Shown here: piece after piece, positions 1 to 17,654 of the stretch
Numbering within the stretch: position 1 is the stretch's first letter
Layout of the letters: every line of letters begins with the position of its first letter
NCBI GenBank assembly: GCA_027493955.1
Contig: JAOSJT010000001.1
Coordinates: 1,847,131 to 1,911,130 of the forward strand
From: Bacteroidia bacterium
GTDB lineage: Bacteria; Bacteroidota; Ignavibacteria; SZUA-365
Direction: 5' to 3'
Length of the DNA stretch: 64,000 nucleotides
Program-made: the position numbers and the translations under genes
Notes under the pieces: model-generated
Databases searched by the model: none
Told to the model about the DNA's origin: nothing
Seen by the model: only the letters and a program-made list of their open reading frames with translations

Positions 1-84
1 CGTATACAGACTCTTGCCCTTGAGCAGCTTGCCGAATTTGTCTCTGTACGTGGGTTGTATGAAATACACTTTCTTTTTCATCAT
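1..84 (-). CDS. N-terminus of probable radical SAM/B12-binding protein (partial, runs off left edge)
   Basis: Only the first 28 codons are inside the window. The start is one of two adjacent ATG codons (84-82 or 81-79). The upstream ABC ATPase gene ends in TGA at 83-81, so the two genes overlap. An AGAGGTGA ribosome-binding sequence sits just before the start. The visible protein begins MMKKKVYFIQPTYRD and continues with LLKGKSL. From memory, this opening (KVYFIQPTYRD...G.LLKG) is typical of B12-binding-domain radical SAM proteins, but the cysteine motif lies outside the window, so the call is an inference. Its position at the end of an operon that already holds another B12/radical SAM enzyme fits. 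Confidence 0.6.
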   Translation of the reverse strand, partial: MMKKKVYFIQPTYRDKFGKLLKGKSLYT

Positions 85-791
85 TCACCTCTGCCTTCGG
101 ACGCGGTGATGCGGCCGCTGTCCATGAAATGAATTACGTCGGCATACTCGCGCAGACGGAGGTCGTGGCTTGCCGCGAGGACGCATTTCTTCAGATCCGC
201 CGCGCAGGAATGGAGCAGACGTATGATTGCTTCGCCCTGCTGTGTGCCGAGACTGGCTGTGGGTTCGTCGGCAATGAGAAGATCGGCGTCGATGGCGAGT
301 GCACGCGCTATTGCCACTCGCTGCCGTTCGCCATGGCTGAGTTCCGGCGGACGCTTGCCTGCGAGCTGCGGAATGCCTACGCGCTCAAGCGCATTCAACG
401 TCCGGCCACGGGCGTCCGCGTTCCGCACCCCTGCGAAGCGCAGTTGCAAGTCGATATTCTCTGCCGCGGTAAGCGCATCGATGAGCAGGAACGTCTGAAA
501 AACGAAGCCGATCCTGGCTGCGCGCAGCGCCTGAAGCTGCCTGGAGCTGTATCCGCCCAGCGTCTGTCCGAAAAGTTCCACCGTTCCACTGCACGGGGCC
601 ACGAAGCCCGCGGAAATCGTGAGCAGCGTGGTTTTACCGCTGCCGCTGGGACCGAGCAACAGCAGCAATTGCCCGGGAAAGGCATCCAGATCGATGTCAG
701 TGAGAGCGGTATATTCGTTGCCCTGCGAAACAAATGACTTCGAAATCCCGCGCAGACGGACCGCCGGTGTGTTTGTATCATGCCGCGTCAT
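81..791 (-). CDS. ABC transporter ATP-binding protein (LolD/MacB type)
   Basis: This 236-aa protein is the cytoplasmic ATPase of an ABC transporter that powers the neighbouring FtsX-type permease. All nucleotide-binding motifs are present: Walker A GPSGSGKT at 47-54, Q-loop Gln99, signature LSHGE at 151-155, Walker B LLIADE at 171-176 and H-loop His209. Length and sequence match the LolD/MacB/FtsE class, which drives export or membrane extraction rather than substrate uptake. The ATG at 791 overlaps the permease stop as ATGA (788-791). The reading frame is open for 67 more codons upstream, but that part is the permease gene read in another frame and was discarded. The gene belongs to the minus-strand operon 84-8530, which suggests export of the operon's product. 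The substrate is unknown. Confidence 0.92.
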   Translation of the reverse strand: MTRHDTNTPAVRLRGISKSFVSQGNEYTALTDIDLDAFPGQLLLLLGPSGSGKTTLLTISAGFVAPCSGTVELFGQTLGGYSSRQLQALRAARIGFVFQTFLLIDALTAAENIDLQLRFAGVRNADARGRTLNALERVGIPQLAGKRPPELSHGERQRVAIARALAIDADLLIADEPTASLGTQQGEAIIRLLHSCAADLKKCVLAASHDLRLREYADVIHFMDSGRITASEGRGE

Positions 792-1888
792 GAGAACACC
801 TCCGACGTAGAAATGCGCCGTACCCTTCTGCTTGCGAGCAAACCGCTGGCGATGCTGATCACGAACACCGCTACGGTGACTGCGAGGATGTGTGACGCTG
901 TGACGAGAGCGGCCACCTCGGGTGTGATCGATTCGATCAGCAGCAGCAACGGATACAGCGCAGCCAGACCGAGACACTCGGACGCGGAACACACGAACAG
1001 CGACTGCGTCAGAACCACACGCCTGAGATAAGAGGACGGCGAACCGATGAGCTTCATTATCGCGAAGTCGTGACGCCTCTCGAGTATATTCACCGAAAGG
1101 ATCAGACTCAGAATGATTGCCAGAACGACTCCCCCAATCAGCGCTATTGCGAAAAACAGCGGAAGTATACCGGACTCGACTTCGCGAATGTTGTTATCGA
1201 GAAATTGCGCATGCTGATGCACGGACAAACGCCCCGGGTACTTCAGGGCAATGTCCCGCGCCACAGATTCGGATGTGCTGCCTCCCCGCACCTGAACGAT
1301 GAAGAAACTCGCCAGACCCGGCAGCTCGATGATCGACTGCTCGTAAGCCAGCGTCACAAACGCGTATTGCGTGACAAATGCGTTTGTCCCGGATGAGAGT
1401 CCAACAACCGTCAGCGAATCGTCCCGCAGCTTCAGTCGCCGGCCGAGACCAATGCCGTGCTTTGCCGCAAACGCCTGATCGAGCACGATCTCGCCGTCCC
1501 TTGTGATCGCCCGCCCTTCGGCGATGCGCGGTGGTCCGCCCAACTCTCCGGGCACGTACCCTGTGAGCAGCACTGTTGCATTGCAGCCGTCAAGCTCAAT
1601 TGTTGCAAAGAACAACAGCACTGCGGTTGCCGAGGCGATGCTCTCGTGTCGGCGGATTTCATCGCAGTATGCCTCGGGCAGTATGGAAGTGCCGCGCATG
1701 ATATTCGATGTGTTCGCCTGCAGCACCCATAAATCGGCGGGGGTCTGACGAACGTAATCCACCGATCCTGTCGCGACGCCATTGTACACCCCGAGAATGA
1801 AAAGTATGAGCACGATACACAGCCCGATGCCCGAAAGTGTCAGCAGCAATCGGACAGGGTGTGTTGTCAGTACGCGCAGGACATACAT
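788..1888 (-). CDS. FtsX/MacB-family ABC transporter permease
   Basis: This 366-aa membrane protein has the MacB/LolC/FtsX layout: one N-terminal transmembrane segment (about 13-36), a large extracytoplasmic domain (about 40-240), then three segments near 243-270, 292-316 and 325-347. The stretch RRHDFAIMKLIGSPSSYL after the second segment resembles the conserved cytoplasmic loop of FtsX permeases. The chosen start at 1888 follows an ACGGAG ribosome-binding site and leaves 19 bp after the epimerase gene. The frame could extend to 1942, but that would overlap the epimerase and add a non-membrane N-terminus. It is translationally coupled to the ATPase downstream. It probably forms a homodimer with two ATPases and exports a lipidic or small-molecule product. 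Confidence 0.88.
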   Translation of the reverse strand: MYVLRVLTTHPVRLLLTLSGIGLCIVLILFILGVYNGVATGSVDYVRQTPADLWVLQANTSNIMRGTSILPEAYCDEIRRHESIASATAVLLFFATIELDGCNATVLLTGYVPGELGGPPRIAEGRAITRDGEIVLDQAFAAKHGIGLGRRLKLRDDSLTVVGLSSGTNAFVTQYAFVTLAYEQSIIELPGLASFFIVQVRGGSTSESVARDIALKYPGRLSVHQHAQFLDNNIREVESGILPLFFAIALIGGVVLAIILSLILSVNILERRHDFAIMKLIGSPSSYLRRVVLTQSLFVCSASECLGLAALYPLLLLIESITPEVAALVTASHILAVTVAVFVISIASGLLASRRVRRISTSEVFS

Positions 1889-1907
1889 GCGGCACGCTCC
1901 GTGTTTT

Positions 1908-2891
1908 TTAATCGTCCAGACACGAACGAAGCACGACTTCAAAATCCGTCCAGCGGAATTGAAAATCCGTTTCGCGCAGTCTGGCCGAGGAAAACGTCAT
2001 ATCGAAGCCGGGCCTCCAGACGCCGAACGCCAGGCTGCGCCGGCCGTGCAATCGCAGTCTGCGCGCCAGCGATGGTCTTCGCTCTATCAATACGGAGATT
2101 TGTCCGAGGAGGCGCTGGCGCAGAAAGCGATACCCGGCGCCGTCGAGTGCACGAAGGTAGGCCTGAAACGCATGTTCGTAGGAGACGGAAGGCTCCGCGA
2201 CGATGTTGTACACGCGGGCACTGAGCTTCTGAAGTTGCATGACATGCACGGCAGCCGCGGCCACATCGTCCACATGCACAAAATTGAAATGCTTGTTCCT
2301 GAACCCTCCGCCAAGAAGAATGCGGGAAACCGCGGCCTTCCGCAGTTCGCTTCCGAAATGCGTGTGCTCCCCGGGCCCAAACACTGCGGTGGGACGAATC
2401 ACAACGGTGTCGATTTCTCTCCCGGCGCCGATCTCCGCAGCGATGCGCTCGCCCAGTAGTTTCGAGCGTCCGTACGGTTCGACTGCACGCGGCAGGATAT
2501 CCTCGGTCACAGCCTGTCCGTTCTGCGCAAGCAGACCATACACTGCGGTGCTGCTGCAGTACAGCGCCTTGCCGATCCCGGCATCGGCGGCAGCTTCCCA
2601 TACGCTGCGTGTGCCCTCAGCGTTGACGCGCAGGAGCTTCGCGGCTGACGTGTGCGAGGTTACCGTCGCCGCAAAATGGTACAGTTGGTCGACTCCGCGC
2701 ATCGCTCCGGCGAGAGACCGGGCGTCGCAAATGTCAATCGCGACCACTTCACAATCATCGCGCCGCGGCAGGGCTTTTTCTGAGCCATGATGTCGCACAC
2801 CCGCTCGCACGTGTACACCGGCGGCGAGCAGGACGTCGACGACGCGTCGTCCCACAAATCCTGATGCTCCGGTGACAAGCGCGGTTGTCAT
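1908..2891 (-). CDS. NAD(P)-dependent epimerase/dehydratase (extended SDR)
   Basis: This 327-aa protein is an extended short-chain dehydrogenase/reductase. The Rossmann motif TGASGFVG is at residues 7-14, and the catalytic set is visible as Ser113/Ser114 and YGRSK (Tyr140, Lys144). Such enzymes epimerise, dehydrate or reduce nucleotide sugars or related hydroxy-ketones. The substrate cannot be read from the motifs, and the closest sub-family could also be a 3-beta-hydroxysteroid or dihydroflavonol-reductase-like SDR. The start codon at 2891 overlaps the stop of the carbamoyltransferase gene as ATGA, so it is coupled to it. Within this operon it probably tailors a sugar or the carbon chain of the product. 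Confidence 0.88.
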   Translation of the reverse strand: MTTALVTGASGFVGRRVVDVLLAAGVHVRAGVRHHGSEKALPRRDDCEVVAIDICDARSLAGAMRGVDQLYHFAATVTSHTSAAKLLRVNAEGTRSVWEAAADAGIGKALYCSSTAVYGLLAQNGQAVTEDILPRAVEPYGRSKLLGERIAAEIGAGREIDTVVIRPTAVFGPGEHTHFGSELRKAAVSRILLGGGFRNKHFNFVHVDDVAAAAVHVMQLQKLSARVYNIVAEPSVSYEHAFQAYLRALDGAGYRFLRQRLLGQISVLIERRPSLARRLRLHGRRSLAFGVWRPGFDMTFSSARLRETDFQFRWTDFEVVLRSCLDD

Positions 2892-4747
2892 ATCTGCCCC
2901 GCATCCTCCGTGCGCCTGGTGACGATGAAATCGCCGAGCGCGAGGAGATCGATATCTGTGTTCAGAAAACAGCGGATGGCATCATCCGGTGTACAAACGA
3001 TGGGCTCATGCATGACGTTGAACGAAGTGTTCAGGAGGACGGGCAGGCCGGTCCGACGGCCGAACGCCCGAATCAGCTCATGGAATCGCGGGTTCGAGTC
3101 CCTTGAGACTGTTTGCACACGCGCAGTTCCGTCGACGTGTGTAACAGCAGGTATTTCACTCCTTTTATCTGGCAGCACCGGCACAACAAACAGCATGTAC
3201 GGCGAATCATGCAGGCCGCTCATATCGAAGAAGTCGTGCACATCCTCTACAGTCACCGCTGGTGCAAAGGGACGGAAGCCTTCGCGGTGCTTGACCTTTG
3301 CATTGATGCGGTCTTTCATATCCGCCGGGCGGGGATCCGCGAGTATGCTTCTGTTGCCCAGGGCACGCGGACCGAATTCCATTCTTCCCTGAAACCAGCC
3401 TGCAACCTTGCCATTCGCCAGTGCTTCTGCCACATCCTCGGTGATGTGCTCTGAGATATCCCAGGCAACTGCATCAGCATGTTTTTCCAGTGCGGCGGTG
3501 ATGTCCGTGTTGTCAAAGCCCGGCCCTGTATACACGTGTCTGAGCTGCGGGCTGGCGCCGTTTCCTTCACCGTATTGATGCCATGCCTGCTGCGCTGCAC
3601 CGAGGGCACCGCCTTCGTCGCCGGCCGCCGGCTGCACGAATATGTCATCGAACAGTCCCGAGCGGGCAATGACGCCGTTCATCATGCTGTTGAGTGCGAC
3701 GCCGCCGGCCATGCACAGCTTGCGCAGTCCAAGACGCCGCTGTGCGTGCGTGAGCGCATGCAGCACCGCTTCTTCCAGCGCTTCCTGCAATGCTGCGGCG
3801 ATATCGCAATGGTGCTGCGCGATTTCCTCTCCTCGCATCCTTGGCATGCCCAACGCCTCCGTCAGACGTGACTTCAGATCACTGCGCGCAAAGCCTTCGA
3901 GCGTATGCGAGCCATCCTCGTGGAGACGAACGAGCGAGCGGAAGAAATCGCGGTAGCGTGCAGGATTGCCATAACCGGCAAGCCCCATCACCTTGTATTC
4001 GTCGCCGAGACTCCTGAAGCCAAGCAACACGGTGACGAGCAGATACAGGGTGCCGAGTGAGGTCGGCAGCATTGTCCGCGACTCCTCGGTAATAGTGGTA
4101 CCGCGACCGACTGCGAGCAGCGCGCTTTCGCGTTCGCCTGTTCCGTCGATGGTATAGATCAGCGCCTCGTGGAATCCCGACGGGTAAAATGCGCTGGCCG
4201 CATGCGCAAGGTGATGCGGGACTTGCTCGAAGCGCCGCGGAGAGCCGCCAGTCATGGCTTCGAACTGGCGAAGCAGCACAGGCAGATCCATCATTTCCAT
4301 AAACACCTTTCGGTACGAATCGCCGATCATGGCGGACTCGTCCGGTGACACGAAGGGTGCGATCAGAGCCTGCCTGTCCGCTATGGCTTGCGAATCAAAG
4401 CGGCAATAATGCGCCACAATATCCACATCATCGATGCCGATGCCTGCTTCTTTCAGGCAGTACGCGATCGCATGTTTCGGCAACAGCGTATTCCCCGCAA
4501 GATTGAGAGCGAACTTCGCTCGGGTAAAGCGCTCCTCCGCAGCGCAGGCGACGAGCTCGCCGTCGCACAGCAGCGCGGCGGATGCATCATGCCCGAAGAA
4601 GCCGAGCGGGAACATCTGAAACGGCACCTCGCCTTCATGAAACATAAAAACGGAGTCGAAATCCTGCTTCGTTTTTGCAAAGGGATTGCGGTAGCCGTCC
4701 GCAGACCGCGAGTCGCGCGTAAAACCGCTGTAACCGAGTACATACAT
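2888..4747 (-). CDS. NodU/TobZ-type O-carbamoyltransferase
   Basis: This 619-aa protein matches the NodU/CmcH/TobZ carbamoyltransferase family, which moves a carbamoyl group from carbamoyl phosphate, through a carbamoyl-adenylate, to a hydroxyl on a sugar or antibiotic. Visible family motifs are GHDASAALL at 52-60, the metal-binding HHLAH at 178-182, and FGPRALGNRSILADPR in the C-terminal half. The length is normal for the family (about 550-630). It starts 5 bp after the methyltransferase stop and ends in the epimerase start. Carbamoylation is a common late decoration in natural products and surface glycans, which supports reading this operon as a tailoring cluster. The substrate is unknown. 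Confidence 0.93.
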   Translation of the reverse strand: MYVLGYSGFTRDSRSADGYRNPFAKTKQDFDSVFMFHEGEVPFQMFPLGFFGHDASAALLCDGELVACAAEERFTRAKFALNLAGNTLLPKHAIAYCLKEAGIGIDDVDIVAHYCRFDSQAIADRQALIAPFVSPDESAMIGDSYRKVFMEMMDLPVLLRQFEAMTGGSPRRFEQVPHHLAHAASAFYPSGFHEALIYTIDGTGERESALLAVGRGTTITEESRTMLPTSLGTLYLLVTVLLGFRSLGDEYKVMGLAGYGNPARYRDFFRSLVRLHEDGSHTLEGFARSDLKSRLTEALGMPRMRGEEIAQHHCDIAAALQEALEEAVLHALTHAQRRLGLRKLCMAGGVALNSMMNGVIARSGLFDDIFVQPAAGDEGGALGAAQQAWHQYGEGNGASPQLRHVYTGPGFDNTDITAALEKHADAVAWDISEHITEDVAEALANGKVAGWFQGRMEFGPRALGNRSILADPRPADMKDRINAKVKHREGFRPFAPAVTVEDVHDFFDMSGLHDSPYMLFVVPVLPDKRSEIPAVTHVDGTARVQTVSRDSNPRFHELIRAFGRRTGLPVLLNTSFNVMHEPIVCTPDDAIRCFLNTDIDLLALGDFIVTRRTEDAGQI

Positions 4748-4752
4748 GGCAA

Positions 4753-5715
4753 TTACCCTCCGGATTTCTTTCCCAGCATGAGAAAATAGCGATCGGGTTT
4801 CAACAGCAGGTCGCAGGCGATCAATTGTTCATCGCTGCTCATCAAATAATATCGACGGCGGAGCTCATCGGATCGCAGCAAAACGCTGATATCCTTTGGA
4901 GCACCGATCCATTCCTCCATGTTCAGCCCGCTTGACTGCAACAGAGCCAGGATAACGCGAAATGTGAGACTATATTCGTTGGGATTGAGAAACTGGTCAG
5001 CTATCCACGTTGCATCCTCAAAAAACGTGCGCAGCAACGGATCGGCGCTTCGCTCCCCGAGCAGATCACGGGCCGCCATGTTGTCTCCTGCCGCTTGAAT
5101 GAATTCGCGTGCCACAGCAACCGCATCATCCGTCGGGTCAGCACCGAGCAACATCGCCAGCAACTCCATGTTGAGCACGTGCCGGTATCGTCCGTATGCA
5201 CCGTACACCCAGAGGAACATGCTGCCTTCGTCTCCAAGCACAGCACTGATATTTCCAAGCGCAGTGTGCATATCCGCCGTGTGGTGCAGCGCGCCGAAAC
5301 AGAGAATAATATCGAAAGGCTTCTCGTGTCTGAGCGGATGAAGCAGATTCCACCGATAGAACTCCGCGTTCCAGAGGCCGTGCGCCGCCACACCACACTT
5401 GGCGCGCTCAATGGAGCTGCCGGAAAGATCTACTCCGGTAAAGGTCACTGCAGGGAACTGCGCCGCGAGCGAAAGCGTCGTGTTCCCCGTCCCGCAGCCT
5501 GCGTCCAGCACGCGTACATCCCTGCCATCCTTTCTCATCGCAGTCACGAGGCGGTCGAACTTCCGTAAAAAGACGAGACTATCCTGTTCCATAGGACGCG
5601 TACCCGGAAATTGTATCGCCTCGTAGAAGCTCCGGACCTCTGCCGTCACATCCTCCTGCGAGCCTCCTACGGAATGACGCAGCGGCATGCCAGTATACCG
5701 ATTCGTGTCAGACAT
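4753..5715 (-). CDS. Class I SAM-dependent methyltransferase
   Basis: This 320-aa protein carries the class I methyltransferase fold. Motif I VLDAGCGTG lies at 69-77, followed by an acidic strand (FTGVDLS), and the FGALHHT motif is typical of Methyltransf_11/12/25 proteins. The C-terminal 130 residues are helical and of no recognised family. They contain an Asn-Pro-Asn-Glu-Tyr (NPNEY) stretch seen in some methyltransferases that follow B12 radical SAM genes, though that association is from memory. The start at 5715 overlaps the upstream radical SAM gene by 8 bp. It may methylate O, N or C on the operon's product. The acceptor cannot be inferred. Confidence 0.88.
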   Translation of the reverse strand: MSDTNRYTGMPLRHSVGGSQEDVTAEVRSFYEAIQFPGTRPMEQDSLVFLRKFDRLVTAMRKDGRDVRVLDAGCGTGNTTLSLAAQFPAVTFTGVDLSGSSIERAKCGVAAHGLWNAEFYRWNLLHPLRHEKPFDIILCFGALHHTADMHTALGNISAVLGDEGSMFLWVYGAYGRYRHVLNMELLAMLLGADPTDDAVAVAREFIQAAGDNMAARDLLGERSADPLLRTFFEDATWIADQFLNPNEYSLTFRVILALLQSSGLNMEEWIGAPKDISVLLRSDELRRRYYLMSSDEQLIACDLLLKPDRYFLMLGKKSGG

Positions 5716-7228
5716 AAAATTCTCTCTTCCTTGAGAACCGATCCGCGATAATGAAATGTCGTTTCAGGCGCGTGCGCACATAGTCATCCTCGATGTCCTC
5801 CCAACGCGTCTGCGCCGACACCACGTAGGCCATGAAGAGACCATCTATCTCGCGCGGTGTGAAATACGGCGGCATGATGTTCTCCGCACGCATCACTCTC
5901 TCCTTCGTAAATGCGAATTCCGTTATCGCCTTCTTCTTCAGCTCTATCATCCGCTCGGCGCTGAAATTGTATGGACCATCGCTTACCTGGACGTAATCGC
6001 GATTGATTTCGTTGTGTTCCTCCTTGAAATACCCCATCGACTGCGCGAGCTCGTACAGTTTTGTTCCGGGGTAATACACGACCTGGAAGAAGGTCGCCCC
6101 GCACAAAGCAGACTGCTTCGCGTATTCGATGGTGCTGAGCGCTTCTTCCTCGGTTTCAGTTGGGAAGCCGAGCATGAAGAAGCCGCGTGTCACGACTCCG
6201 GCCTCTGAAAACAAATCGATCGTGCGAAAGGCCGTGTCGAGATCGAGATTCTTCTTTATCAGCTTCTGCAGACGGGGAGACGCGGTTTCGATGGCTATAG
6301 CGGTAAACTTCGTCCCCGCCAGCGCCATTTTTTCCACAAGTTCCTCATCGACCCTGTCCGAGCGTATCGCATTCGGAAACGCGAACGTCAGATTCATGCC
6401 ACTCTGGATAATCAAGTCGCAAATTCGCTTCGCCCGGTCCATATCGAGATTGAAAATGTCGTCGATCACCTGAAAGTCCGTGATCCCCAGTTCGTCATGT
6501 ATCCAGCGGATCTCCTCGAACACGTTCTGTGCGGACCTGGGTCGGAAGGTCTTGCCCAGAATATTGTGACAATACGCGCAGCGGTAGGGACATCCGCGCG
6601 ACGTCATGATATTCGCATGCGGCGTCGATACCTTAGCAGCGAAGCTGAGGTAGCGGTTCGAAAAAATATCGAGATCCACGACCGAGTAATCCGGAAACGG
6701 GAGCGCATCGAGATCGTTGATCACGGCGCGGGGAGGATTTTTGACCATGCTTCCATTGTTCCGAAACGCGATGCCCTCGACGTGCGCGTAGGGCACGCGA
6801 TCGAGCAGGCACTGCGTCAATTCAAGCAGTGTCAGCTCGCCTTCCCCGATAACGGCCACATCAACCAGACCTGTCGACAGCACATCGCCCGGATCGTCGG
6901 ACGCGTATGGACCGCCGGCGAGAAGCACGCAATCGCTTCGCCACCCCTTCACAACCCGGGCCACAGTGTGGACACAATCGCTGCTGAGCGTGAGTGAGCG
7001 TAGCCCCACGACGTCCGGCTGTGCTTCCTCCAGCAGGCGCTGCATCGACTCGCGGTCCTGGTCTGCATGATGAGGCAGCGAAATCAGCGAGCGCAGTTCC
7101 ACGTCCACCAGTGCGCCGAAGCGCTGTTTAAGTACAGCCGAAAGGTACATCAGGCCGAGCGAGTGTTCTGCGGCGGGCCATATCTCCTCGAGGCCCGAGC
7201 GGAGAATATCGACGAGCAGGAATTTCAT
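5708..7228 (-). CDS. B12-binding domain radical SAM protein
   Basis: This 506-aa protein has an N-terminal cobalamin-binding-like domain (about 1-140) followed by a radical SAM core. The 4Fe-4S motif CPYRCAYC places cysteines at 213, 217 and 220. Downstream are the SAM-domain strands (DDIFNLD, RSDRVDEEL, GFFMLGFPTET). Such enzymes do radical methylations, ring contractions or C-C bond rearrangements. The cobalamin DxHxxG motif is not obvious, so B12 may or may not bind. The ATG at 7228 overlaps the stop of the FkbH-like gene as ATGA and has GTGAGGA upstream. The frame continues to an ATG at 7252, but without a good ribosome-binding site. Its partners suggest an unusual C-methylation or rearrangement in the cluster's pathway. 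Confidence 0.9.
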   Translation of the reverse strand: MKFLLVDILRSGLEEIWPAAEHSLGLMYLSAVLKQRFGALVDVELRSLISLPHHADQDRESMQRLLEEAQPDVVGLRSLTLSSDCVHTVARVVKGWRSDCVLLAGGPYASDDPGDVLSTGLVDVAVIGEGELTLLELTQCLLDRVPYAHVEGIAFRNNGSMVKNPPRAVINDLDALPFPDYSVVDLDIFSNRYLSFAAKVSTPHANIMTSRGCPYRCAYCHNILGKTFRPRSAQNVFEEIRWIHDELGITDFQVIDDIFNLDMDRAKRICDLIIQSGMNLTFAFPNAIRSDRVDEELVEKMALAGTKFTAIAIETASPRLQKLIKKNLDLDTAFRTIDLFSEAGVVTRGFFMLGFPTETEEEALSTIEYAKQSALCGATFFQVVYYPGTKLYELAQSMGYFKEEHNEINRDYVQVSDGPYNFSAERMIELKKKAITEFAFTKERVMRAENIMPPYFTPREIDGLFMAYVVSAQTRWEDIEDDYVRTRLKRHFIIADRFSRKREFYV

Positions 7229-8253
7229 TGTATCCTCACCCATGATGGACATACAGGCTTCTGTGAATGGTCAAGAAGAAACACAAGACTTCCATTTTCG
7301 CGAAGCTCATGCTGCCGGAAACCCGCCATCTGGAACATTGTGCGCATCATACGATTCCGATCCGTCGCTGTGTACGATGCTGTTACGCTTGCGCAGCCTC
7401 GCTCCGTCGCCTCACCTATGAGCGTGGAGAGAATCGCACGTTCGACTCCGCGCCCCATGACGCGGCACGACATCGCGAAGAGTTGAATATCCCAGCGCGC
7501 TCCGGTGGTTTCCGACATGACCGTACCGATGATACCGCAGGCGCCAAACCTGTCCCGCAGTTCCGCGACATAGAGGCTGCGGACGTCACCGGGATCCTCA
7601 AGCATGCGATATACCTCGGCCTCGTCCGGTAACAGCCCGGTAGAGTTCATCTGATGCGTGCGCTTCATCAATTCAAGAACTCGTGGAACGTCCGTGGTCG
7701 CAGCATGGCGGACGCACAACTCCATGCCGCAGGAGAGCAGGAAGTCCTCACGACTCGCGAAATCGCGCTCGGCGGCTTTCCTGGCCTCTTCCTCCTGATA
7801 GAGCCGGTTGCGCTTCATGGCCTCGGGAGTCAGCGGACCGGAATCAAAGCCAGGGAGATCCGGAAGCCCTGCTGCCTGATCCGCTGCGAAAACGCGCACG
7901 CCCGGCAGCATCCATGCGACCTGCTCGCGTTCGAAGGGATCGTCGTCGATAAAGGCCGCGGCATCCGGCGCCAGATTGAGCGTACGCACGATGTCAAGGA
8001 TGTTCGTGTTTTTCGGAAGCCAGTTAATCTTCGGAGCGGTGAAATACGGGCGCAGTTGATGCTCTTCCAGGGTCCGCAGCGCGATGGCTTCATCTCCCCG
8101 GCTGGCAATGGATTGCAATATCCCGCGCCCGTGGAGAGTTTCAAGCGTCCGGACCGCCTCCGGGCGGGGTGTGACCTGTCCTTCGAGACAGATGCCGTCC
8201 CACACCGTATTATCCAGATCCCAGATCACGCATTTGCAGAGCCACGACATCAT
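7225..8253 (-). CDS. FkbH-like HAD-IIIC protein with C-terminal GNAT-like domain
   Basis: This 342-aa protein shows the HAD-IIIC/FkbH architecture. The nucleophile motif DLDNTVWDG (Asp12, Asp14) is near the N-terminus, FIDDDPFE is at 101-108, and a GNAT-like domain fills about 175-342. In characterised pathways FkbH proteins dephosphorylate 1,3-bisphosphoglycerate and load the glyceryl group onto an acyl carrier protein, supplying methoxymalonyl-type or glycerate-derived starter units. The ACP gene directly upstream (1-bp gap) is the expected partner, so glyceryl-S-ACP formation is a reasonable prediction. An AGGAGGGGTGAA ribosome-binding site precedes two adjacent ATGs (8253 and 8250). Related HAD-IIIC proteins also occur in surface-glycan clusters, so polyketide chemistry is not proven. 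Confidence 0.92.
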   Translation of the reverse strand: MMSWLCKCVIWDLDNTVWDGICLEGQVTPRPEAVRTLETLHGRGILQSIASRGDEAIALRTLEEHQLRPYFTAPKINWLPKNTNILDIVRTLNLAPDAAAFIDDDPFEREQVAWMLPGVRVFAADQAAGLPDLPGFDSGPLTPEAMKRNRLYQEEEARKAAERDFASREDFLLSCGMELCVRHAATTDVPRVLELMKRTHQMNSTGLLPDEAEVYRMLEDPGDVRSLYVAELRDRFGACGIIGTVMSETTGARWDIQLFAMSCRVMGRGVERAILSTLIGEATERGCASVTASYTATDRNRMMRTMFQMAGFRQHELRENGSLVFLLDHSQKPVCPSWVRIQ

Positions 8254-8254
8254 T

Positions 8255-8530
8255 TCACCCCTCCTCGATTACGGCGGGCTCGCTGAGCCGGCTGCGGATG
8301 TAGTCCGCGATGGAGGCGATGGTAGTGAATTTTTCCGGGATGAGATCCTCGTCGGGAATGACGATATCGAATCGTTCCTCGATATAGCCGATAAAATGGA
8401 TCAGTCCGGCGGAATCGATGGTCCCGGTCTCGAACAGGTTGTCACCAAGCCCGAGCGTTGTCTGCATCTTCTGAGGAAGACAGTGCTCGCGGATAAATGC
8501 GATAAGGATAGCTTCGATATCCGTTTCCAT
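8255..8530 (-). CDS. Acyl carrier protein
   Basis: This 91-aa acidic protein has the four-helix carrier-protein pattern. The predicted phosphopantetheine attachment serine is Ser40 in GTIDSAG, where the usual DSL is DSA, so a small residue follows the serine. It is the first gene of the operon and is preceded by GAGGAGATGACTG, a strong ribosome-binding site. It is not the housekeeping fatty-acid AcpP, because the motif and context differ. It is the likely carrier for a glyceryl unit loaded by the FkbH-like protein encoded immediately downstream. No ketosynthase, adenylation or condensation domain is seen in the window, so the enzyme that extends or offloads the ACP-bound unit must be elsewhere, probably beyond the left edge. 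Confidence 0.92.
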   Translation of the reverse strand: METDIEAILIAFIREHCLPQKMQTTLGLGDNLFETGTIDSAGLIHFIGYIEERFDIVIPDEDLIPEKFTTIASIADYIRSRLSEPAVIEEG

Positions 8531-8673
8531 CAGTCATCTCCTCATGGTTGTTGCACCTGGCACGGGACAATGGTGATTCGATCGCAGACAGAGGACACTG
8601 CACCGGGGTAGCAATCGCGAGACCGCGTTTCAGGCGTCCATAATGCCCGATTATCTTCTATTTTGACATTGCG

Positions 8674-8705
8674 CAAAGATACCTGCGATGGCAGCGAAAA
8701 ACAAG
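8674..8705 (-). promoter_or_regulatory. Candidate Bacteroidetes-type promoter for the ACP/FkbH operon
   Basis: On the minus strand, TATCTTTG (8681-8674) matches the -7 consensus TAnnTTTG exactly. A TTGT that approximates the -33 TTTG lies 20 bp upstream (8705-8702). This would start transcription near 8667, about 135 bp before the ACP gene. It is a pattern match only, in the right place and orientation. Confidence 0.4.
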
Positions 8706-8832
8706 TGTCGCGCATCGGGCAGCGCGTCTTCGGGCAGCGCGTCAACCGCAATTTCGCCCGCCGCTCCCCCCTCTTTGTCACAATGTTGTCAAAGTATCGT
8801 CACGGGTGCTGTTACCGAAGCACGTGGCCGTT

Positions 8833-8862
8833 TTTGGGCTGAGATGCCCTCGCATAGTTTAG
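8833..8862 (+). promoter_or_regulatory. Candidate promoter facing the SBBP gene
   Basis: TTTG at 8833-8836 and TAGTTTAG at 8855-8862 match the -33/-7 Bacteroidetes consensus with one mismatch and an 18-bp spacer. It faces the plus-strand gene starting at 9137 and would leave a leader of roughly 270 bp. The match is weak. Confidence 0.25.
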
Positions 8863-9136
8863 CGGCGATAGGCCTGGCACGATGTTAGTGTCGTTTGATG
8901 CTGGAACTCCGGGAAGCACGCACATTTCAGTGTAACTACGTAGGGATTTACGTACCTCCACTCATTGAGCTTGCGGGATGAATCAGGTAGTTTTCTGCTG
9001 CACAACCCGCATCGATCCCGGCAACCTCCATTGCCGAACCTTATGGCGCCAGGCGTCACCGCATGCATGCGGGCAATGCAACACGTGAAGTCAGACATCA
9101 TTTTTCTTACGCATTGCACAGCAGGAGGACAAGACA

Positions 9137-12118
9137 ATGAAACGGTTCCATTTTTCGATTATGACAGCGATACTGCTCATCTCTTCGGTGGTAGAGATGT
9201 ACGCGTCCGGTCCCGACCGTGCCTCGCAGTCACTCGCGAATACAGGGATCCGATTCCAGGAAAACCGCGGGCAAATTGTTGATTCCGAAGGACGAGCGCG
9301 CCACGACATCGCCTTCATTGCGGAGGCACCAGGAGTGCGTATGTATTTTCGCATTGACGGAATCAGCTATGTCTTCAGCGAGACAAGCCTTAACCTCGCC
9401 GAAGCTCCTCATGAGGGTGCGCCGGTGACCTTCGCCAAAAGCAGCACAGCTGCTGAATCAAAGCTCTATCGCATGGATATGACATTCCCGGGCAGCAATC
9501 CGAACACGCGTCTGCGCGTCGGCGATGTGTACCCGGGGTATGTGAATTACTACCTCCCCCACTGCCCGCAGGGTATCACGGGTGTCAAAGAGTACGGTCG
9601 TATCGTGTATGAGAATATCTACCGGCACATCGACCTGGAACTCCTCAGTAGCGGCGGAAAGATCAAATACAACTTCGTTGTGCGTCCCGGCGGGCTGGTG
9701 AGCGACATACGTATGCACTATGATGGCTCCATCGAAACCGCGCTGACACAGGCAGGGCTACTGCAAATCGCAACGCCCCTCGGCCGCATCGAAGAAGCCG
9801 CTCCGTACAGCTACGTTGGCCGTGAAGAAAACGAAGTGCAATCACGATTTATTCAAGACGGCAACACCGTGGGCTTCGAGGTGGATGCGTATGATCGTTG
9901 GCAGACGCTCGTCATCGATCCCTGGGCGACCTATTATGGGGGAAGCGCAGGAGACGGAGCGTATGAAATTGTCGTCGACGAATACGGAAATGTCATTATT
10001 GCCGGAAACACAAGCAGTCTGAATCTCCCGGTCAGCACGGGTCTGCAGACGGTACTTGCCGGCGGATCCGATGCGTTTGTGACGAAGTTTGACAACGCGG
10101 GACAGCGCGTCTGGGCGACGTACTATGGAGGCAGCGGTAATGATGGGGCTGCCAGCATCTCGTGGAATACGAACGGGAAATGCACTATCGTCGGCACCAC
10201 CTACAGCAGCAATCTCCCCGGAACGTCAGGATCCTATCAGCCGCTGTACAAGGGTAACGGCGATGCCTACCTCGCACAGTTCAGTTCCGCCGGAGTGCTT
10301 CTGTGGGCGACCTATTACGGCGGCACAAAGGTGGAGCAGATGCCCTGTGCCGCCACGGATGCCAACGGCAACATTTTTCTTGCCCTTCAGTCCGGCAGCA
10401 AGGGCATGCCTCTCACGCCCGGCGTGTTTTCCGTGAGCGGTGGTCTGAACCTCGTAAAGTTCAGCGAGAGCGGCACCTTGCTCTGGGCCACGCAGCATGG
10501 CAGCGGAACACCGTGGGACGGCATCGCCACCGACGTGTACGGCAACATTCTCGTCACGGGTATGGCGCCCAGCGGATTTCCGGTGTCAAGCGGAGCGTGG
10601 CAATCCACCTGCGCCGGAGGCAATGACGCCTTTATCCTCAAGTACAGCGGAAGCGGTGCGCGGCTGTGGTCAACATATTACGGAGGAAGCAGCAACGACT
10701 GGGCGCGCGGGCTAGCGACCGACGGAAACGGTGATGTTGTGATCACCGGCTACACGTACAGCACGGATCTACCCGTTTCTCCCACTGCATTCCAGACCTA
10801 CCATGCCGGAGGTGGGATGTATGACCAGGATGCCTATCTCGCGAAGTTTTCCGCCTCGGGACAGCACCTGTGGTCCACATACTACGGAGGAAGCAGCTAC
10901 GACTATGGATTCGCAGTGACAACAGATCTGAACAATAGCATCACGTTCGCCGGAAGCACCAGCAGTGCGCAGTTTCCGGTTTCTCCCGGAGCATTCCAGG
11001 GGTCGATCCAAGGAATGCGAGATGGCTTTGTTGTCCAGTTCAGCAGCGCTGGAAGCAGAAATTGGGCGACGTTTTTCGGAGGCAGCAATGACGAGACAGT
11101 GTATGGTATTGTTTCTGACGCAGCGGCCGCGTTGTACTTTACGGGAAACACGTACAGCACCGATTTCCCGACTCTGAATCCATCTCAGCCGGTAAATGCA
11201 GGTCAAGCGGACGCCTTCATCGCACAGCTCAACTCGAGCGGCCTCATTCCCGGCTACAATGCCCCACCTGTTGCGGTGATGGCTGCAGTTCCGACACAGG
11301 GTAAAGCTCCGCTGGCGGTGAACTTCAGTTCCGCCGGTTCGTATGATCCGGACGGCACGATCACAGCATATTCCTGGGATTTCGGCGACGGAGGCAGCTC
11401 TAATCTGGAGCACCCGTCTCATGACTACCTGACTCCCGGCGTCTATACCGCCGTGTTGATGGTGACGGACAATGGCAACGCGACCGCGAGTGCGAGTACG
11501 ACGGTTACTGTCACCTCGGCCTCCGCATACCTCTATGTGCATGATCAGACGGTCACCCGCGTCAAGGCAGGAAACAAGTGGAAAGGCCGGGATCTGATCA
11601 CCATTTATGATGGAGCGAATCAGCCCGCGTCCGGTGCGGTGGTGACCGCCAGCTACAGCGGGCCGAACAGCGGAACGGCAACGGGAACGACAGCCAGCAA
11701 CGGAACAGTAATGCTCGAAACAGCGCCCATAGCCAATCCTGCGGGCATTTGGTGCTTCACCGTCACCAACGCCCAGAAAAGCGGCTATACGTATAATTCC
11801 GGCATCGGTGTGCCCAGCGCCTGTGAAGTGGCACCGAAAGTGAGCACGTCCATCCCATCCACGATTGATGTCAGCGTGGATCCTAATCCCTTCAATCCTT
11901 CGACGACCCTCACATACAGTATACCAGACGACGGCTTTGTCCTACTGAAAGTTTTTAATGTGAGCGGACAGGTTGTATCAGTTTTGGTGAAGGAGAAGAA
12001 AGCACCAGGGACATACTCCGTTGTCTTCAATGGTGCTCATCTGCCGAGTGGACTCTACCTCTACCGTCTTGAAGCAGACGACCAGACTTGTGTTGGCCGG
12101 ATGATTCTGATCAAGTAG
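9137..12118 (+). CDS. Secreted SBBP-repeat / PKD-domain protein with T9SS sorting domain
   Basis: This 993-aa exported protein has a signal peptide (about 1-23), then a beta-rich N-terminal domain (about 35-255) containing ENRGQ and ending in VIDPWATYYGG. That layout is usual for the domain that precedes SBBP repeats. Seven SBBP-type repeats follow (W-A/S-T-Y-Y-G-G-S spaced about 55-60 residues, about 257-690), forming a likely beta-propeller. Next come a PKD domain near 711-800 (WDFGDGGSS), an Ig-like segment, and a C-terminal type IX sorting domain (about 910-993) with DPNPFNPSTTLTYSIP and LPSGLYLYRLEA. It is probably surface-attached or released. The ligand is unknown. The ribosome-binding site GCAGGAGGACAAG is strong. 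A paralogue lies at 60445-63300. Confidence 0.93.
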   Translation: MKRFHFSIMTAILLISSVVEMYASGPDRASQSLANTGIRFQENRGQIVDSEGRARHDIAFIAEAPGVRMYFRIDGISYVFSETSLNLAEAPHEGAPVTFAKSSTAAESKLYRMDMTFPGSNPNTRLRVGDVYPGYVNYYLPHCPQGITGVKEYGRIVYENIYRHIDLELLSSGGKIKYNFVVRPGGLVSDIRMHYDGSIETALTQAGLLQIATPLGRIEEAAPYSYVGREENEVQSRFIQDGNTVGFEVDAYDRWQTLVIDPWATYYGGSAGDGAYEIVVDEYGNVIIAGNTSSLNLPVSTGLQTVLAGGSDAFVTKFDNAGQRVWATYYGGSGNDGAASISWNTNGKCTIVGTTYSSNLPGTSGSYQPLYKGNGDAYLAQFSSAGVLLWATYYGGTKVEQMPCAATDANGNIFLALQSGSKGMPLTPGVFSVSGGLNLVKFSESGTLLWATQHGSGTPWDGIATDVYGNILVTGMAPSGFPVSSGAWQSTCAGGNDAFILKYSGSGARLWSTYYGGSSNDWARGLATDGNGDVVITGYTYSTDLPVSPTAFQTYHAGGGMYDQDAYLAKFSASGQHLWSTYYGGSSYDYGFAVTTDLNNSITFAGSTSSAQFPVSPGAFQGSIQGMRDGFVVQFSSAGSRNWATFFGGSNDETVYGIVSDAAAALYFTGNTYSTDFPTLNPSQPVNAGQADAFIAQLNSSGLIPGYNAPPVAVMAAVPTQGKAPLAVNFSSAGSYDPDGTITAYSWDFGDGGSSNLEHPSHDYLTPGVYTAVLMVTDNGNATASASTTVTVTSASAYLYVHDQTVTRVKAGNKWKGRDLITIYDGANQPASGAVVTASYSGPNSGTATGTTASNGTVMLETAPIANPAGIWCFTVTNAQKSGYTYNSGIGVPSACEVAPKVSTSIPSTIDVSVDPNPFNPSTTLTYSIPDDGFVLLKVFNVSGQVVSVLVKEKKAPGTYSVVFNGAHLPSGLYLYRLEADDQTCVGRMILIK

Positions 12119-12128
12119 GCAAACAGTA

Positions 12129-12158
12129 TGCGGGTTGGGAAGCAATTCCCAACCCGCA
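12129..12158 (+). terminator. Hairpin terminator without T-tract after the SBBP gene
   Basis: There is a perfect 13-bp stem (TGCGGGTTGGGAA with its complement) closed by a GCAA tetraloop, starting 11 bp after the stop codon. The downstream bases are not T-rich, so it may act as an RNA 3'-end stabiliser as much as a terminator. Confidence 0.65.
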
Positions 12159-12217
12159 CGATCCTATTCAAGATGGCCATAAATAACTGACTTTACGACT
12201 ATAACCGATAACGAGGC

Positions 12218-14026
12218 ATGGTTATGATATACTCCATAATTAATATTCACAACACGATAGCAAGAGCAATGAACATACGAAACAGAGTTCTCACATTGCT
12301 CATATTGACGACTCTGACATCATTGGTCGCAACACAGGACTGTTGGTCACAATCCGTAGCTGGTGGCGGGGCTCATTCTCTCGTGTTGTACCCGACTGGT
12401 GCCGTTTCTGCAACCGGACTGAACGACTGGGGGCAACTCGGCGATGGATCGACAACAAACAGAACGACACTTGTTCGGGTAACCGAGCTTAATGGCGTAA
12501 CCGCCGTTTCAGCTGGTCAACATTTTTCTCTTGCCTTGAAAGAGAATGGGACTGTCTGGGCATGGGGATTGGGTGGACATGGACAACTCGGTGATGGGAC
12601 CCAAACGACAAGGCTTACACCTGTTCAGGTATCTGGGTTATCAGGAGTAACAGCAATTTCCTGCGGTCAGGAGTATTCGCTCGCCTTGAAAAACGACGGG
12701 ACGGTCTGGGCATGGGGATATAATGGAGAAGGCGAGCTCGGTGATGGGAGTACGGTGTGGAGAGTGACGCCCGTACAGGTTTCGGGATTAGCTGGAGTAG
12801 TTGCTATTGCAGGCGGATGGCGCCATTCTCTTGCATTGAAAGATGATGGAACAGTCTGGGCATGGGGGCTGAACACAGATGGACAACTCGGAGATGGCAC
12901 CACGACAACAAAATTGTCTCCCGTACAGGTCGCTGGACTATGTGGAATAACCGCCATATCGGTTGGTTGGACTCATTCACTTGCCGTAAAAGCTGATGGG
13001 ACTGTCTGGGCTTGGGGATTGAATGTGAATGGACAACTCGGCGATGGCACCACCACGACGAGACCGACACCCGTTCAAGTAACTGGGTTATCAGAAATAG
13101 TTGCCACTTCCGCAGGGAGGTATCATTCGCTGGCCAAAAGGGCTGATGGAACAGTTCGAGCGTGGGGAGTAGGTGGGGAACTCGGCGATGGAAGCACAGT
13201 GACGAGGCTGACGCCCGTCCAGGTTCTCGGGTTATCTGGAATAACTTCCATTTCCAGTGGAGCGGAGCATGGCCTTGCAATGAAAAATGATGAATCGGTC
13301 TACGCATGGGGAGCGAATTGGTTTGGACAACTCGGTGATGGAACCACAGATTGGAGGTTAACACCGTTTCAAATGATTCCTACCGTCGATGCAGGGCCCG
13401 ATTTGACACTAACTTTGGGCTATGGAGATCAATCCAAGACGATCACGGCGGTCGCATCTGGCGGCACGCCCCCCTACAGCTACATGTGGTCCACGAACCA
13501 GACCACAGCTTCAATTACTGTTTCTCCTATGCTCACCACAGTCTATACTGTGACAATCACTGATGCGAGCAACCGGACGGCAACAGACAACGTGACAGTG
13601 ACCGTGATTGACTGGCGTTGTGGGATTCAGAACAACAAAGTCAAGATCTGTCACAATGGTCATGAGATATGCGTCGATGCGAGTGCCGTGCCTGCACATC
13701 TCGAACATGGAGACAACCTTGGTAGCTGTCAAACACCAAAAGTTGAGTCTAACACCAATACATCTAATTTTTTCCTCTCCCAAAACTTCCCCAACCCCTT
13801 CAACCCAACCACCACGATCAGCTACAGCCTACCGGAGCGCGCCGTCGTGCAGCTTCGCGTCTATGACCTCATCGGGCGCGAAATTGCTGTGCTGGTCAAT
13901 GGAGAGCGGGAGGCCGGTGTGCATACTGTGTTGTTCGACGCCCACGCACTTGATGCAGGCGTATATTTCTATCGGCTCTTTGCCGGCAATGAGGTGCTCT
14001 CGGGAGCGATGACGCTGGTGAAGTAA
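12218..14026 (+). CDS. Secreted RCC1-repeat (beta-propeller) protein with T9SS sorting domain
   Basis: This 602-aa exported protein contains seven consecutive RCC1-type repeats of about 50 residues, each with GQLGDG or GELGDG and most with TVWAWG. Seven copies are the number needed to close an RCC1 seven-bladed propeller. After the propeller come a SprB/PKD-like domain (about 390-465), a short cysteine motif ICHNGHEICV...AHLEHGD...C, and a type IX sorting domain (NFPNPFNPTTTISYSLP...GVYFYRLF). Two starts are possible: ATG 12218, with ACGAGG just upstream, or ATG 12269, which begins directly at a classic signal peptide (MNIRNRVLTLLILTTL) but has a poor ribosome-binding site. The upstream start is kept. 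RCC1 proteins often bind proteins, so an adhesive role is possible but unproven. Confidence 0.9.
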   Translation: MVMIYSIINIHNTIARAMNIRNRVLTLLILTTLTSLVATQDCWSQSVAGGGAHSLVLYPTGAVSATGLNDWGQLGDGSTTNRTTLVRVTELNGVTAVSAGQHFSLALKENGTVWAWGLGGHGQLGDGTQTTRLTPVQVSGLSGVTAISCGQEYSLALKNDGTVWAWGYNGEGELGDGSTVWRVTPVQVSGLAGVVAIAGGWRHSLALKDDGTVWAWGLNTDGQLGDGTTTTKLSPVQVAGLCGITAISVGWTHSLAVKADGTVWAWGLNVNGQLGDGTTTTRPTPVQVTGLSEIVATSAGRYHSLAKRADGTVRAWGVGGELGDGSTVTRLTPVQVLGLSGITSISSGAEHGLAMKNDESVYAWGANWFGQLGDGTTDWRLTPFQMIPTVDAGPDLTLTLGYGDQSKTITAVASGGTPPYSYMWSTNQTTASITVSPMLTTVYTVTITDASNRTATDNVTVTVIDWRCGIQNNKVKICHNGHEICVDASAVPAHLEHGDNLGSCQTPKVESNTNTSNFFLSQNFPNPFNPTTTISYSLPERAVVQLRVYDLIGREIAVLVNGEREAGVHTVLFDAHALDAGVYFYRLFAGNEVLSGAMTLVK

Positions 14027-14156
14027 GAGAAGCGTCCTCAGCGAGACCAGGAATAATTGAAGGAAAGAGGAGACGGTCTTGATATTCGGAATTACAAACC
14101 GTATGTTACGGCCGTACTCCCCTTTTCTCCATACGAACCGACGAACGGTGACAGCC

Positions 14157-17100: not shown

Positions 17101-17654
17101 ATAACGTCCTTTCGGCCCGCGAGAGCCTGGCCAGCATTGCTGAACGAGCCAAGAACGTCATCGTGGAGGTGCGTCGGGTTTCACGGAACCTGCGTCCTGT
17201 ACAGCTCGAACGCGCCGGACTCACCGAAACAGTGAGAGACACCCTGCACCGCATTGAAGCATCGACAGGGCTGCATATACAAACCGATATAGAGAACATG
17301 GACGGCTGCTTTTCCCAGGACAAGGAAATTCATCTCTTCCGCATCGTCCAGGAAAGCATCAGCAACATCCTCAGCCACTCGCATGCGGATGCGGCATCCG
17401 TCAGCGTTTCGCGAAATGATGCGGACGTGCATATCCGAATCGAGGACAATGGCATCGGCTTCGATGTGTCGGCATTGACGATACGGCAGGATTCAGAACG
17501 TGGCTTCGGACTTCACGGAATGAGAGAGCGGGTGGCGATGCTCGGCGGCACTATAGCAATCGTAAGCAACCCGGGACAAGGCACAACAATTGACGTGCGC
17601 ATCCCACTGCCTGTTGATACTGAGCGTATGTACGAGGCGCAGGAGGTAACGTGA
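14157..17654 (+). CDS. TPR-repeat sensor histidine kinase (HisKA_3 / NarL-type)
   Basis: This is a very large sensor kinase (1165 aa). A signal-peptide-like segment (MKTRLFYWGAFSFLVLWL) leads into a long array of tetratricopeptide repeats (about 35-780, periplasmic by topology), then a coiled coil (about 795-880), one transmembrane helix at 886-902 and a cytoplasmic kinase. The HisKA_3 box has ERRRLAGELHDGLGQ with the phospho-acceptor His961. The ATPase has an N-box near 1061 (RIVQESISNILSHSHA) and G-boxes DNGIGF and GFGLHGMRER. HisKA_3 kinases pair with LuxR-type regulators, and one overlaps its 3' end by 4 bp. The start is uncertain: a TTG at 14079 preceded by GAGGAG at ideal spacing would add 26 residues. 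The sensed signal is unknown, probably a protein or peptide bound by the TPRs. Confidence 0.9.
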   Translation: MKTRLFYWGAFSFLVLWLMSSVLCAQQAKIDSLHACLSSKQLPSEIRVRLLLELSELVNRTDPEYSFSLAKQALPIARKIRDARIEARSLYLMGYCRLVLSQLNSATELINSSMAISTRIRNYAAMADALRCLGYIEKRKGNQDKYVTYLKRSLSVCEQHGYTKGAAQVLMNLGFAAIGAEALGYFERSYEKFHQLNDIHSILSVLHVLGGGYYDLQEYERAEQWLLKAPPLIPLAGDDRLVAGCYELLAMTHQQLGKIQTARTYFSNAVDHARLSDDRNLFAECLQKAGVVEYDAGFQVIALRYFSEAREVFSLLNDSARLCELLVNVANCHERLGKNDSAISNYKKGQSIASSIGHIPALLGALEGMSLVYKNLGAAEKAHEMDKQRLTIYENSGESSEWSARQIAGIYHDFGLYFELRGSNDEAHRHYERALKVLSDAKIKDGMAQLYSSIGGLYEKTGNPRAALEAYSTGLAIAENTGEFASQVTHLTNIGLLHLGEDRLDECLKYLKRSIDLNSMLGNPKGFVYAYVNMGLAYRRLGKLDLAMDYYLRGLDQARSVGEQYALAWALHRVAECYLSLEDYHRAIKHIEECRSIVENRFDRSWLAEVLGTAALAYRHLHEFDKAQQYVQRSLEIHKMIGSTEGIGKDNFIIGLIHAQRRQFDEALPYFDAAEKLGAQTTQYASVAEARLNIGLCHLARHRYEQARDHLMQALSMAELCNRIEVKRDACKGLSDAAHANGDHVAAFKYHVRFTALRDSVLREQNRQSINEITARYEFDLKNQRITILEQEQSLQKSELARQAESLRLKALEMERMRQRNQLITRQHELDLLQLEKQRQDHLLTTTQLDLERETRVRREKDVILISNERSYNASLAHSARQVKNMLLILLLLLLVISYLTFKRIRAKKVEAALRAEAAEVRELAARTELERKESEFQKLYTSRLIEIEEQERRRLAGELHDGLGQELLVIENQAELALIDYNVLSARESLASIAERAKNVIVEVRRVSRNLRPVQLERAGLTETVRDTLHRIEASTGLHIQTDIENMDGCFSQDKEIHLFRIVQESISNILSHSHADAASVSVSRNDADVHIRIEDNGIGFDVSALTIRQDSERGFGLHGMRERVAMLGGTIAIVSNPGQGTTIDVRIPLPVDTERMYEAQEVT

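What the first reader, a model, noticed from the sequence alone, without database searches (positions are those of the whole stretch)
81..8530. FkbH/ACP operon with B12 radical SAM, carbamoyltransferase and its own ABC exporter
Eight complete genes overlap or nearly touch on one strand. ACP plus FkbH-like HAD-IIIC predicts glyceryl-S-ACP made from 1,3-bisphosphoglycerate (known FkbH chemistry). They sit with a radical SAM enzyme, a methyltransferase, a NodU/TobZ carbamoyltransferase, an SDR and a MacB-type exporter. No ketosynthase or NRPS gene is visible. This is either an unusual small-molecule pathway or a glycerate-based decoration of a lipid or glycan, and I know of no exact match to this gene set.
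Basis: partly seen in the sequence, partly recalled or inferred. Interest (0 to 1): 0.75.

Follow-up and report, generated by a model that had tools for sequence, protein, structure and literature searches.

The report
Assembly-line-free glycerate carrier pathway
A compact set of six enzyme genes, kept together in the same order in eight bacterial genomes including this one, is predicted to load a three-carbon sugar acid onto a small carrier protein and likely decorate it there with methyl and carbamoyl groups, in a genome that showed none of the large assembly-line enzymes that such carriers usually serve, which would make it an unstudied route to a small molecule.

Summary
Window 8530..81 (minus strand) carries ACP, FkbH, B12-type radical SAM, methyltransferase, GdmN/TobZ-type carbamoyltransferase, extended SDR and an ABC pair. 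Three starts move inward, and the operon runs 2 kb beyond the window (a second radical SAM gene and a LysE-like gene): ten genes, 10.5 kb. The left flank beyond is ordinary, with no PKS, NRPS or O-antigen gene. Genome searches found one strong ketosynthase hit beside the one FabH-type hit, no condensation domain, no hopanoid cyclase and one FkbH. The six-gene core ACP-FkbH-rSAM-MT-CarbT-SDR stands in one order in all eight orthologous loci found; exporter and second radical SAM gene are accessory. It is patchy: 4 of 12 listed family genomes, 5 of 294 sampled in the class. It lacks the dehydrogenases of methoxymalonyl-ACP operons and the FabH-like gene of tetronate operons, and its FkbH has RTHQ where four outgroup loci have RTNQ or RSNQ. 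Best reading: a free-standing carrier-bound glycerate pathway, likely giving a methylated, O-carbamoylated glycerate. Product, release step and radical chemistry are unknown. My searches of open-licence papers found no description of this gene set.

The parts
8255..8530 (-). Acyl carrier protein, 91 aa, first gene; Asp39-Ser40 phosphopantetheine site
   Evidence: PF00550 34.1 bits over cut-off 20.8; D39-S40 invariant in 8 of 8 orthologs
7225..8253 (-). FkbH: HAD-IIIC phosphatase domain plus GNAT-like domain, 342 aa
   Evidence: TIGR01686 239.4 bits, cut-off 146.65; DLDNT, DDDPFER, MSCRVMGRG, RTHQ motifs; model pLDDT 92.8 with HAD and GNAT matches
5708..7228 (-). B12-type radical SAM enzyme (rSAM1), 506 aa
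4753..5715 (-). Class I SAM methyltransferase (MT), 320 aa
   Evidence: PF08242 73.6 bits; DAGCGTG in 8 of 8
2888..4747 (-). NodU/TobZ-family O-carbamoyltransferase (CarbT), 619 aa
   Evidence: PF16861 252.1 and PF02543 181.3 bits; nearest solved relative GdmN, E 2e-127; HHLAHAAS and EFGPRALG in 8 of 8
1908..2891 (-). Extended SDR, oxidoreductase/epimerase type, 327 aa
   Evidence: PF01370 141.8 bits; GxxGxxG, S113, Y140, K144 kept in 8 of 8
788..1888 (-). MacB/FtsX-type ABC permease, 366 aa (accessory)
   Evidence: PF12704, PF02687; start by orthologs
81..791 (-). LolD/DevA-like ABC ATPase, 236 aa (accessory)
   Evidence: PF00005 103 bits; start by orthologs
1..84 (-). First 28 codons of a second radical SAM gene (rSAM2, 459 aa) that runs out of the window and is followed by a LysE-like gene
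   Evidence: L003:13705-15084 and L003:12984-13667, L003 15001 = window 1

Best explanation
The operon encodes a free-standing acyl carrier protein with its FkbH loader, a radical SAM enzyme, a methyltransferase, a carbamoyltransferase and a reductase-type SDR, and it is predicted to build a small carbamoylated, methylated glycerate derivative on the carrier without any polyketide or peptide assembly line. Inferred steps: (1) FkbH takes the glyceryl group of 1,3-bisphosphoglycerate, likely holds it on Cys263 (role of this Cys recalled) and passes it to the phosphopantetheine arm on Ser40 of the ACP; (2) MT likely O-methylates one hydroxyl and CarbT likely carbamoylates the other, as loading modules of varlaxin and suomilide are proposed to methylate and sulfate FkbH-loaded glycerate; (3) rSAM1, whose structural relatives CysS and TokK were crystallised with pantetheine-linked substrates, would change the carbon skeleton (C-methylation, or diol dehydration as in AprD4 with the SDR as reductase); (4) the SDR would adjust oxidation state or release the product; (5) where present, the ABC pair and LysE-like protein would export it. 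Shown: gene content, intact motifs, conserved order, no assembly line found in this genome. Not shown: every chemical step.
Confidence: 0.5

Rival explanations
1. The loaded and carbamoylated glyceryl group is a decoration that another enzyme, coded elsewhere, transfers to a cell-surface glycan, lipid or flagellin.
For: An FkbH-domain gene, cj1302, is among the genes compared for Campylobacter jejuni flagellar glycans (one passage of PMC7099621), so FkbH need not serve PKS/NRPS; the ATPase resembles DevA and LolD, some of which move lipids (recalled); SDR's nearest models include sugar epimerases.
Against: No glycosyltransferase, flippase or polymerase family among the ten operon genes, ten flank proteins of the window and 20 flank proteins of six other loci (L004 flanks not scanned). 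L032 has a GNAT acetyltransferase-family gene next to its SDR, not found in the seven loci searched for it.
Confidence: 0.2
2. The core makes a three-carbon extender or starter unit that feeds fatty-acid synthesis (FabH/FabF) to give an unusual lipid.
For: The genome's one FabH-type and one strong ketosynthase hit sit together and could accept a carrier-bound unit.
Against: They lie 2.4 Mb away and, as single copies, would be the housekeeping set; FkbI/FkbK-type dehydrogenases are missing from the operon.
Confidence: 0.1
3. An ordinary methoxymalonyl-ACP or tetronate (glycerate-utilisation) operon that has lost its partner assembly line.
For: ACP and FkbH are shared with both kinds (PMC7489565 passages).
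Against: Neither the two dehydrogenases nor a FabH-like protein is among the ten genes or in the shared core, while L010, an FkbH locus without the core, carries both dehydrogenases and L008 the acyl-CoA dehydrogenase and an NRPS (L008's other dehydrogenase read by eye); purifying selection on the core; FkbH motif differs.
Confidence: 0.07
4. The ACP/FkbH pair and the tailoring enzymes do not act on one substrate; the operon joins two functions, e.g. a carbamoylated nucleoside or sugar made by rSAM1/SDR/CarbT.
For: The nearest solved relatives of CarbT, GdmN and TobZ, carbamoylate large acceptors (recalled); SDR resembles sugar-nucleotide enzymes.
Against: No sugar activation or transfer gene among the ten; the six genes do not separate in the eight loci.
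Confidence: 0.13

Closest known systems
FkbH-PCP glycerate loading modules of suomilide/varlaxin (aeruginosin family)
   Same: FkbH is proposed to load glycerate on a carrier; it is then methylated and given a second polar group (passages of PMC10143770, and PMC8609519)
   Different: There these are domains of an NRPS and the second group is sulfate; here all are single proteins, the second group would be carbamate and no NRPS was found
Mitomycin early pathway (MmcB ACP, MitE, MitB, MitD, MmcS)
   Same: Small molecule assembled on a free ACP; radical SAM enzyme, methyltransferases, carbamoyltransferase (passages of PMC8621148)
   Different: Starter is aminohydroxybenzoate loaded by a ligase, and a glycosyltransferase acts on the ACP
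Methoxymalonyl-ACP operon (FkbG-K)
   Same: ACP, FkbH, methyltransferase (passages of PMC7489565)
   Different: Both dehydrogenases missing; no PKS found in the genome; carbamoyltransferase, radical SAM and SDR added
Tetronate glycerate-utilisation operon
   Same: FkbH and free ACP
   Different: No FabH-like gene in the operon
Ansamitocin/geldanamycin clusters
   Same: Carbamoyltransferase closest to GdmN among solved structures, in clusters that also use methoxymalonyl-ACP (recalled; geldanamycin also)
   Different: Those serve a large PKS (recalled)

Membership tests
FkbH family | TIGR01686 score over curated cut-off | tested here: met
   239.4 bits against 146.65
FkbH family | HAD motifs and conserved Cys in the C-terminal domain | tested here: met
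   DLDNT, DDDPFER, SCRVMGRG in the window protein; SCR motif in 118 of 120 close relatives
FkbH family | Loads glyceryl from 1,3-bisphosphoglycerate onto ACP | not testable with these tools
   needs assay
Methoxymalonyl-ACP operon | Acyl-CoA dehydrogenase (FkbI) and 3-hydroxyacyl-CoA dehydrogenase (FkbK) genes | tested here: not met
   absent among the ten genes and from the shared core; both present in the contrast locus L010
Tetronate glycerate-utilisation operon | FabH-like gene in the operon | tested here: not met
   the single ACP_syn_III_C hit is 2.4 Mb away
PKS or NRPS cluster | Ketosynthase or condensation domain nearby, or a PKS/NRPS in the genome | tested here: not met
   one strong KS hit next to the FabH hit, two weak ones, no condensation domain
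NodU/TobZ carbamoyltransferase | Both Pfam domains and the HHxxHA motif | tested here: met
   motif in 116 of 120 relatives
B12-dependent radical SAM enzyme | B12-binding and Radical_SAM domains, CxxxCxxC | tested here: met
   CxxxCxxC in 120 of 120 relatives
B12-dependent radical SAM enzyme | Binds and uses cobalamin | not testable with these tools
   AprD4, a 1,2-diol dehydratase, matches as well as cobalamin methylases
Hopanoid HpnJ/HpnA pathway | Squalene-hopene cyclase in the genome; model cut-offs | tested here: not met
   no PF13249 hit; HpnJ 148.6 of 577.6, HpnA 120.7 of 367.65 bits
O-antigen/capsule cluster | Glycosyltransferase, flippase or polymerase genes in operon or flank | tested here: not met
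   ten operon genes plus seven left-flank and three right-flank proteins scanned

The most novel reading that the evidence does not exclude
A so far unnamed class of natural-product pathway, spread over several uncultured bacterial phyla, that uses an FkbH-loaded acyl carrier protein as the whole workbench: glycerate is loaded from glycolysis, methylated, carbamoylated and rebuilt by a B12 radical SAM enzyme while bound, and released as an exported carbamoyl-glycerate small molecule, with no assembly line at all.
Probability: 0.35. Interest if true: 0.75.

Novelty: new variant of a known kind. Interest (0 to 1): 0.6.

Why it matters
FkbH is usually described as a supplier of glycerate-derived units to polyketide and peptide assembly lines. 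A conserved cassette in which FkbH, its carrier and four tailoring enzymes stand alone would give a compact, easily expressed pathway, a new place to look for carbamoylated small molecules in uncultured bacteria, and a test case for radical chemistry on a carrier-bound three-carbon unit.

Tried and rejected
Hopanoid link (HpnJ and HpnA are the best NCBIfam models of rSAM1 and SDR): rejected, scores far below cut-off and no cyclase hit in the genome. Cobalamin or other riboswitch: no Rfam match in window 8200-9400, and only two tRNAs in L003, L004, L005, L006, L007, L023 and L025. Sigma-70 promoter upstream of the ACP: none by consensus, 1.0 expected by chance, uninformative. Mobile-element carriage: no relative of the rSAM1 alignment in viral contigs, no plasmid match at E 1e-60. 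Defence system: PADLOC at E 1e-10 gave only partial matches of the ATPase, methyltransferase and radical SAM proteins. Literature: ten searches, seven aimed at the gene set and three at precedents; no listed title or abstract describes this gene set. FkbH with 'radical SAM' gave 0 papers, FkbH with 'carbamoyltransferase' 1 (suomilide, an NRPS cluster). I looked at passages of six papers, whole texts of none; subscription journals are mostly not held, so this is no proof of absence. A pattern for the carrier-protein site was wrong and returned nothing; the alignment replaced it. The carbamoyltransferase pattern was too narrow (33 of 120) and was redone (116 of 120); one search's narrow FkbH DDDPFE pattern matched 54 of 120, and the looser one all but 15.
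Full report
What is there. The eight genes reported at 81-8530 exist, on the minus strand, in the order ACP, FkbH, rSAM1, MT, CarbT, SDR, permease, ATPase. Comparing starts with orthologs shortens three of them (rSAM1 5708-7228, permease 788-1888, ATPase 81-791). Junctions are then +1, -4, -8, +5, -4, +19, -4 bases, and the next two genes outside the window follow at -4 and +37. The window is bases 1,847,131-1,911,130 of a single-contig 5.24 Mb genome. The two extra genes are a radical SAM protein (459 aa; Radical_SAM 57.4 bits, no B12-binding match at E 0.001) and a LysE-like membrane protein (22.6 bits, under the cut-off of 25.6). Beyond them lie a TonB-dependent receptor, a beta-helix protein, an M28 peptidase, a BNR-repeat protein and three small or poorly characterised proteins; to the right of the ACP, on the other strand, an SBBP/PKD protein, an RCC1-repeat protein and a TPR histidine kinase. 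None of these ten matches a PKS, NRPS or polysaccharide family.

Is it real as a unit? A pattern scan of 84,980 species genomes with FkbH gave eight loci, four with the core (L004-L007) and four without (L008-L011). With the window that makes eight loci in eight genomes, and in 8 of 8 the six core genes stand in the same order and strand. Identity to the window runs from 82% (rSAM1, L004) down to 36% (ACP, L032). The second radical SAM gene is linked in 5 of 8 (window, L004, L007, L023, L025; in L025 it lies upstream of the ACP). It is absent from the 1.3 kb between the ATPase and the contig end in L005, from 9 kb upstream and 1.5 kb downstream in L006 (whose genome's best match is 29% identical), and from the 8.8 kb contig L032, where only 440 bases precede the ACP. 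The ABC pair is in 4 of 8 (window, L004, L005, L023), all one family; the LysE-like gene in 3 of 8 (window, L004, L023). The window's seven flank proteins tested have no counterpart in the other loci except shared Por-secretion tails. Twenty flank proteins of L005, L006, L007, L023, L025 and L032 scanned against Pfam give two-component, outer-membrane, nucleotidase, DinB and unknown families, one GNAT acetyltransferase (L032), and no PKS, NRPS or glycosyltransferase; the flanks of L004 were not scanned.

Distribution. At E 1e-120 the window's rSAM1 was found in 1 of 395 genomes sampled from the phylum, 5 of 294 from the class (4 of the 12 listed for the window's family) and 2 of 80 of the Krumholzibacteriia locus's phylum; L007's rSAM1 was found in 1 of 98 genomes of the order of G542; each count includes the centre genome. 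The protein database gives 1213 rSAM1 relatives at E 1e-60 and 2561 FkbH relatives at 1e-30, among about 8,000 scored candidates each; names given by sources include Bacteroidetes, Ignavibacteria and Deltaproteobacteria (rSAM1) and Gemmatimonadota (FkbH only). In the 120 best rows for rSAM1 (119 with a length), FkbH and CarbT, longest-contig lengths coincide in 25, 29 and 25 pairs and in 14 triples; shifted controls average 0.68, 0.71 and 0.46 (maximum 4). This is an indirect sign of linkage, not a reading of those contigs.

No assembly line found. In the whole genome PF00109 gives one strong hit (202.9 bits) and two weak ones (31.1 and 21.1 bits, in ORFs of 425 and 395 aa, probably thiolases, not checked); PF08541 one hit, about 2 kb from the strong ketosynthase; PF00668 none, although the same search rang in 4 of 14 control genomes; TIGR01686 one (this FkbH); PF01648 one. 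So the FkbH/ACP pair has no PKS or NRPS to feed, and the fatty-acid enzymes are single copies far away.

A family mark. RTHQ in the GNAT-like domain occurs in the FkbH of 8 of 8 core loci and 116 of the 120 closest relatives (of the other four, one has RSHQ, one RAHQ and two no match), while L008, L009 and L010 have RTNQ and L011 RSNQ. His200 may mark a distinct cargo or acceptor; that is untested.

Against this reading. No enzyme for release is obvious; the cargo is inferred; L007 has a changed HAD loop (DLYNT) and L025 lacks the exact DDDPFER motif; contig ends limit what can be said of L005, L006 and L032; the dN/dS values (0.055-0.159) rest on saturated dS; and no chemistry has been shown.

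Known or new. Each of the six core proteins belongs to a known family. The methoxymalonyl-ACP and tetronate operons were tested and fail on defining genes; L010, with both dehydrogenases, and L008, with an acyl-CoA dehydrogenase and an NRPS, show what the usual FkbH context looks like. The closest working parallels are the glycerate loading modules of aeruginosin-type NRPSs and the ACP-tethered assembly of mitomycin (passages). Seven searches of open-licence papers aimed at the gene set found no description. I rate it a new variant of a known kind.

Noticed in passing
L007:2941-3963: This core FkbH has DLYNT instead of DLDNT in the HAD nucleophile loop although the rest of the cassette looks intact; the only such case among 120 close relatives.
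   Followed up: partly
L009:9534-11298: Bacillota locus with a GNAT-family gene, FkbH and a short ACP-like gene (PP-binding 20.5 bits, just under its cut-off of 20.8) next to what looks, by eye, like glutamyl-tRNA synthetase and no PKS/NRPS seen by eye in 14 kb: perhaps another assembly-line-free FkbH system.
   Followed up: partly
L011:8181-16561: Omnitrophota locus with a 588 aa FkbH that has the FkbH_N domain, beside (by eye) MaoC- and SDR-like genes, a membrane O-acyltransferase-like gene and a sialic-acid-synthase-like gene: possibly a glycan context for FkbH.
   Followed up: partly
window 9137-14026: Two neighbouring proteins (DUF7948/SBBP/PKD and RCC1 repeats) with Por secretion-tail matches (the first just under cut-off) lie on the opposite strand to the operon.
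   Followed up: partly
window 14079-17654: 1191 aa protein fusing many TPR repeats to a HisKA_3 histidine kinase.
   Followed up: no
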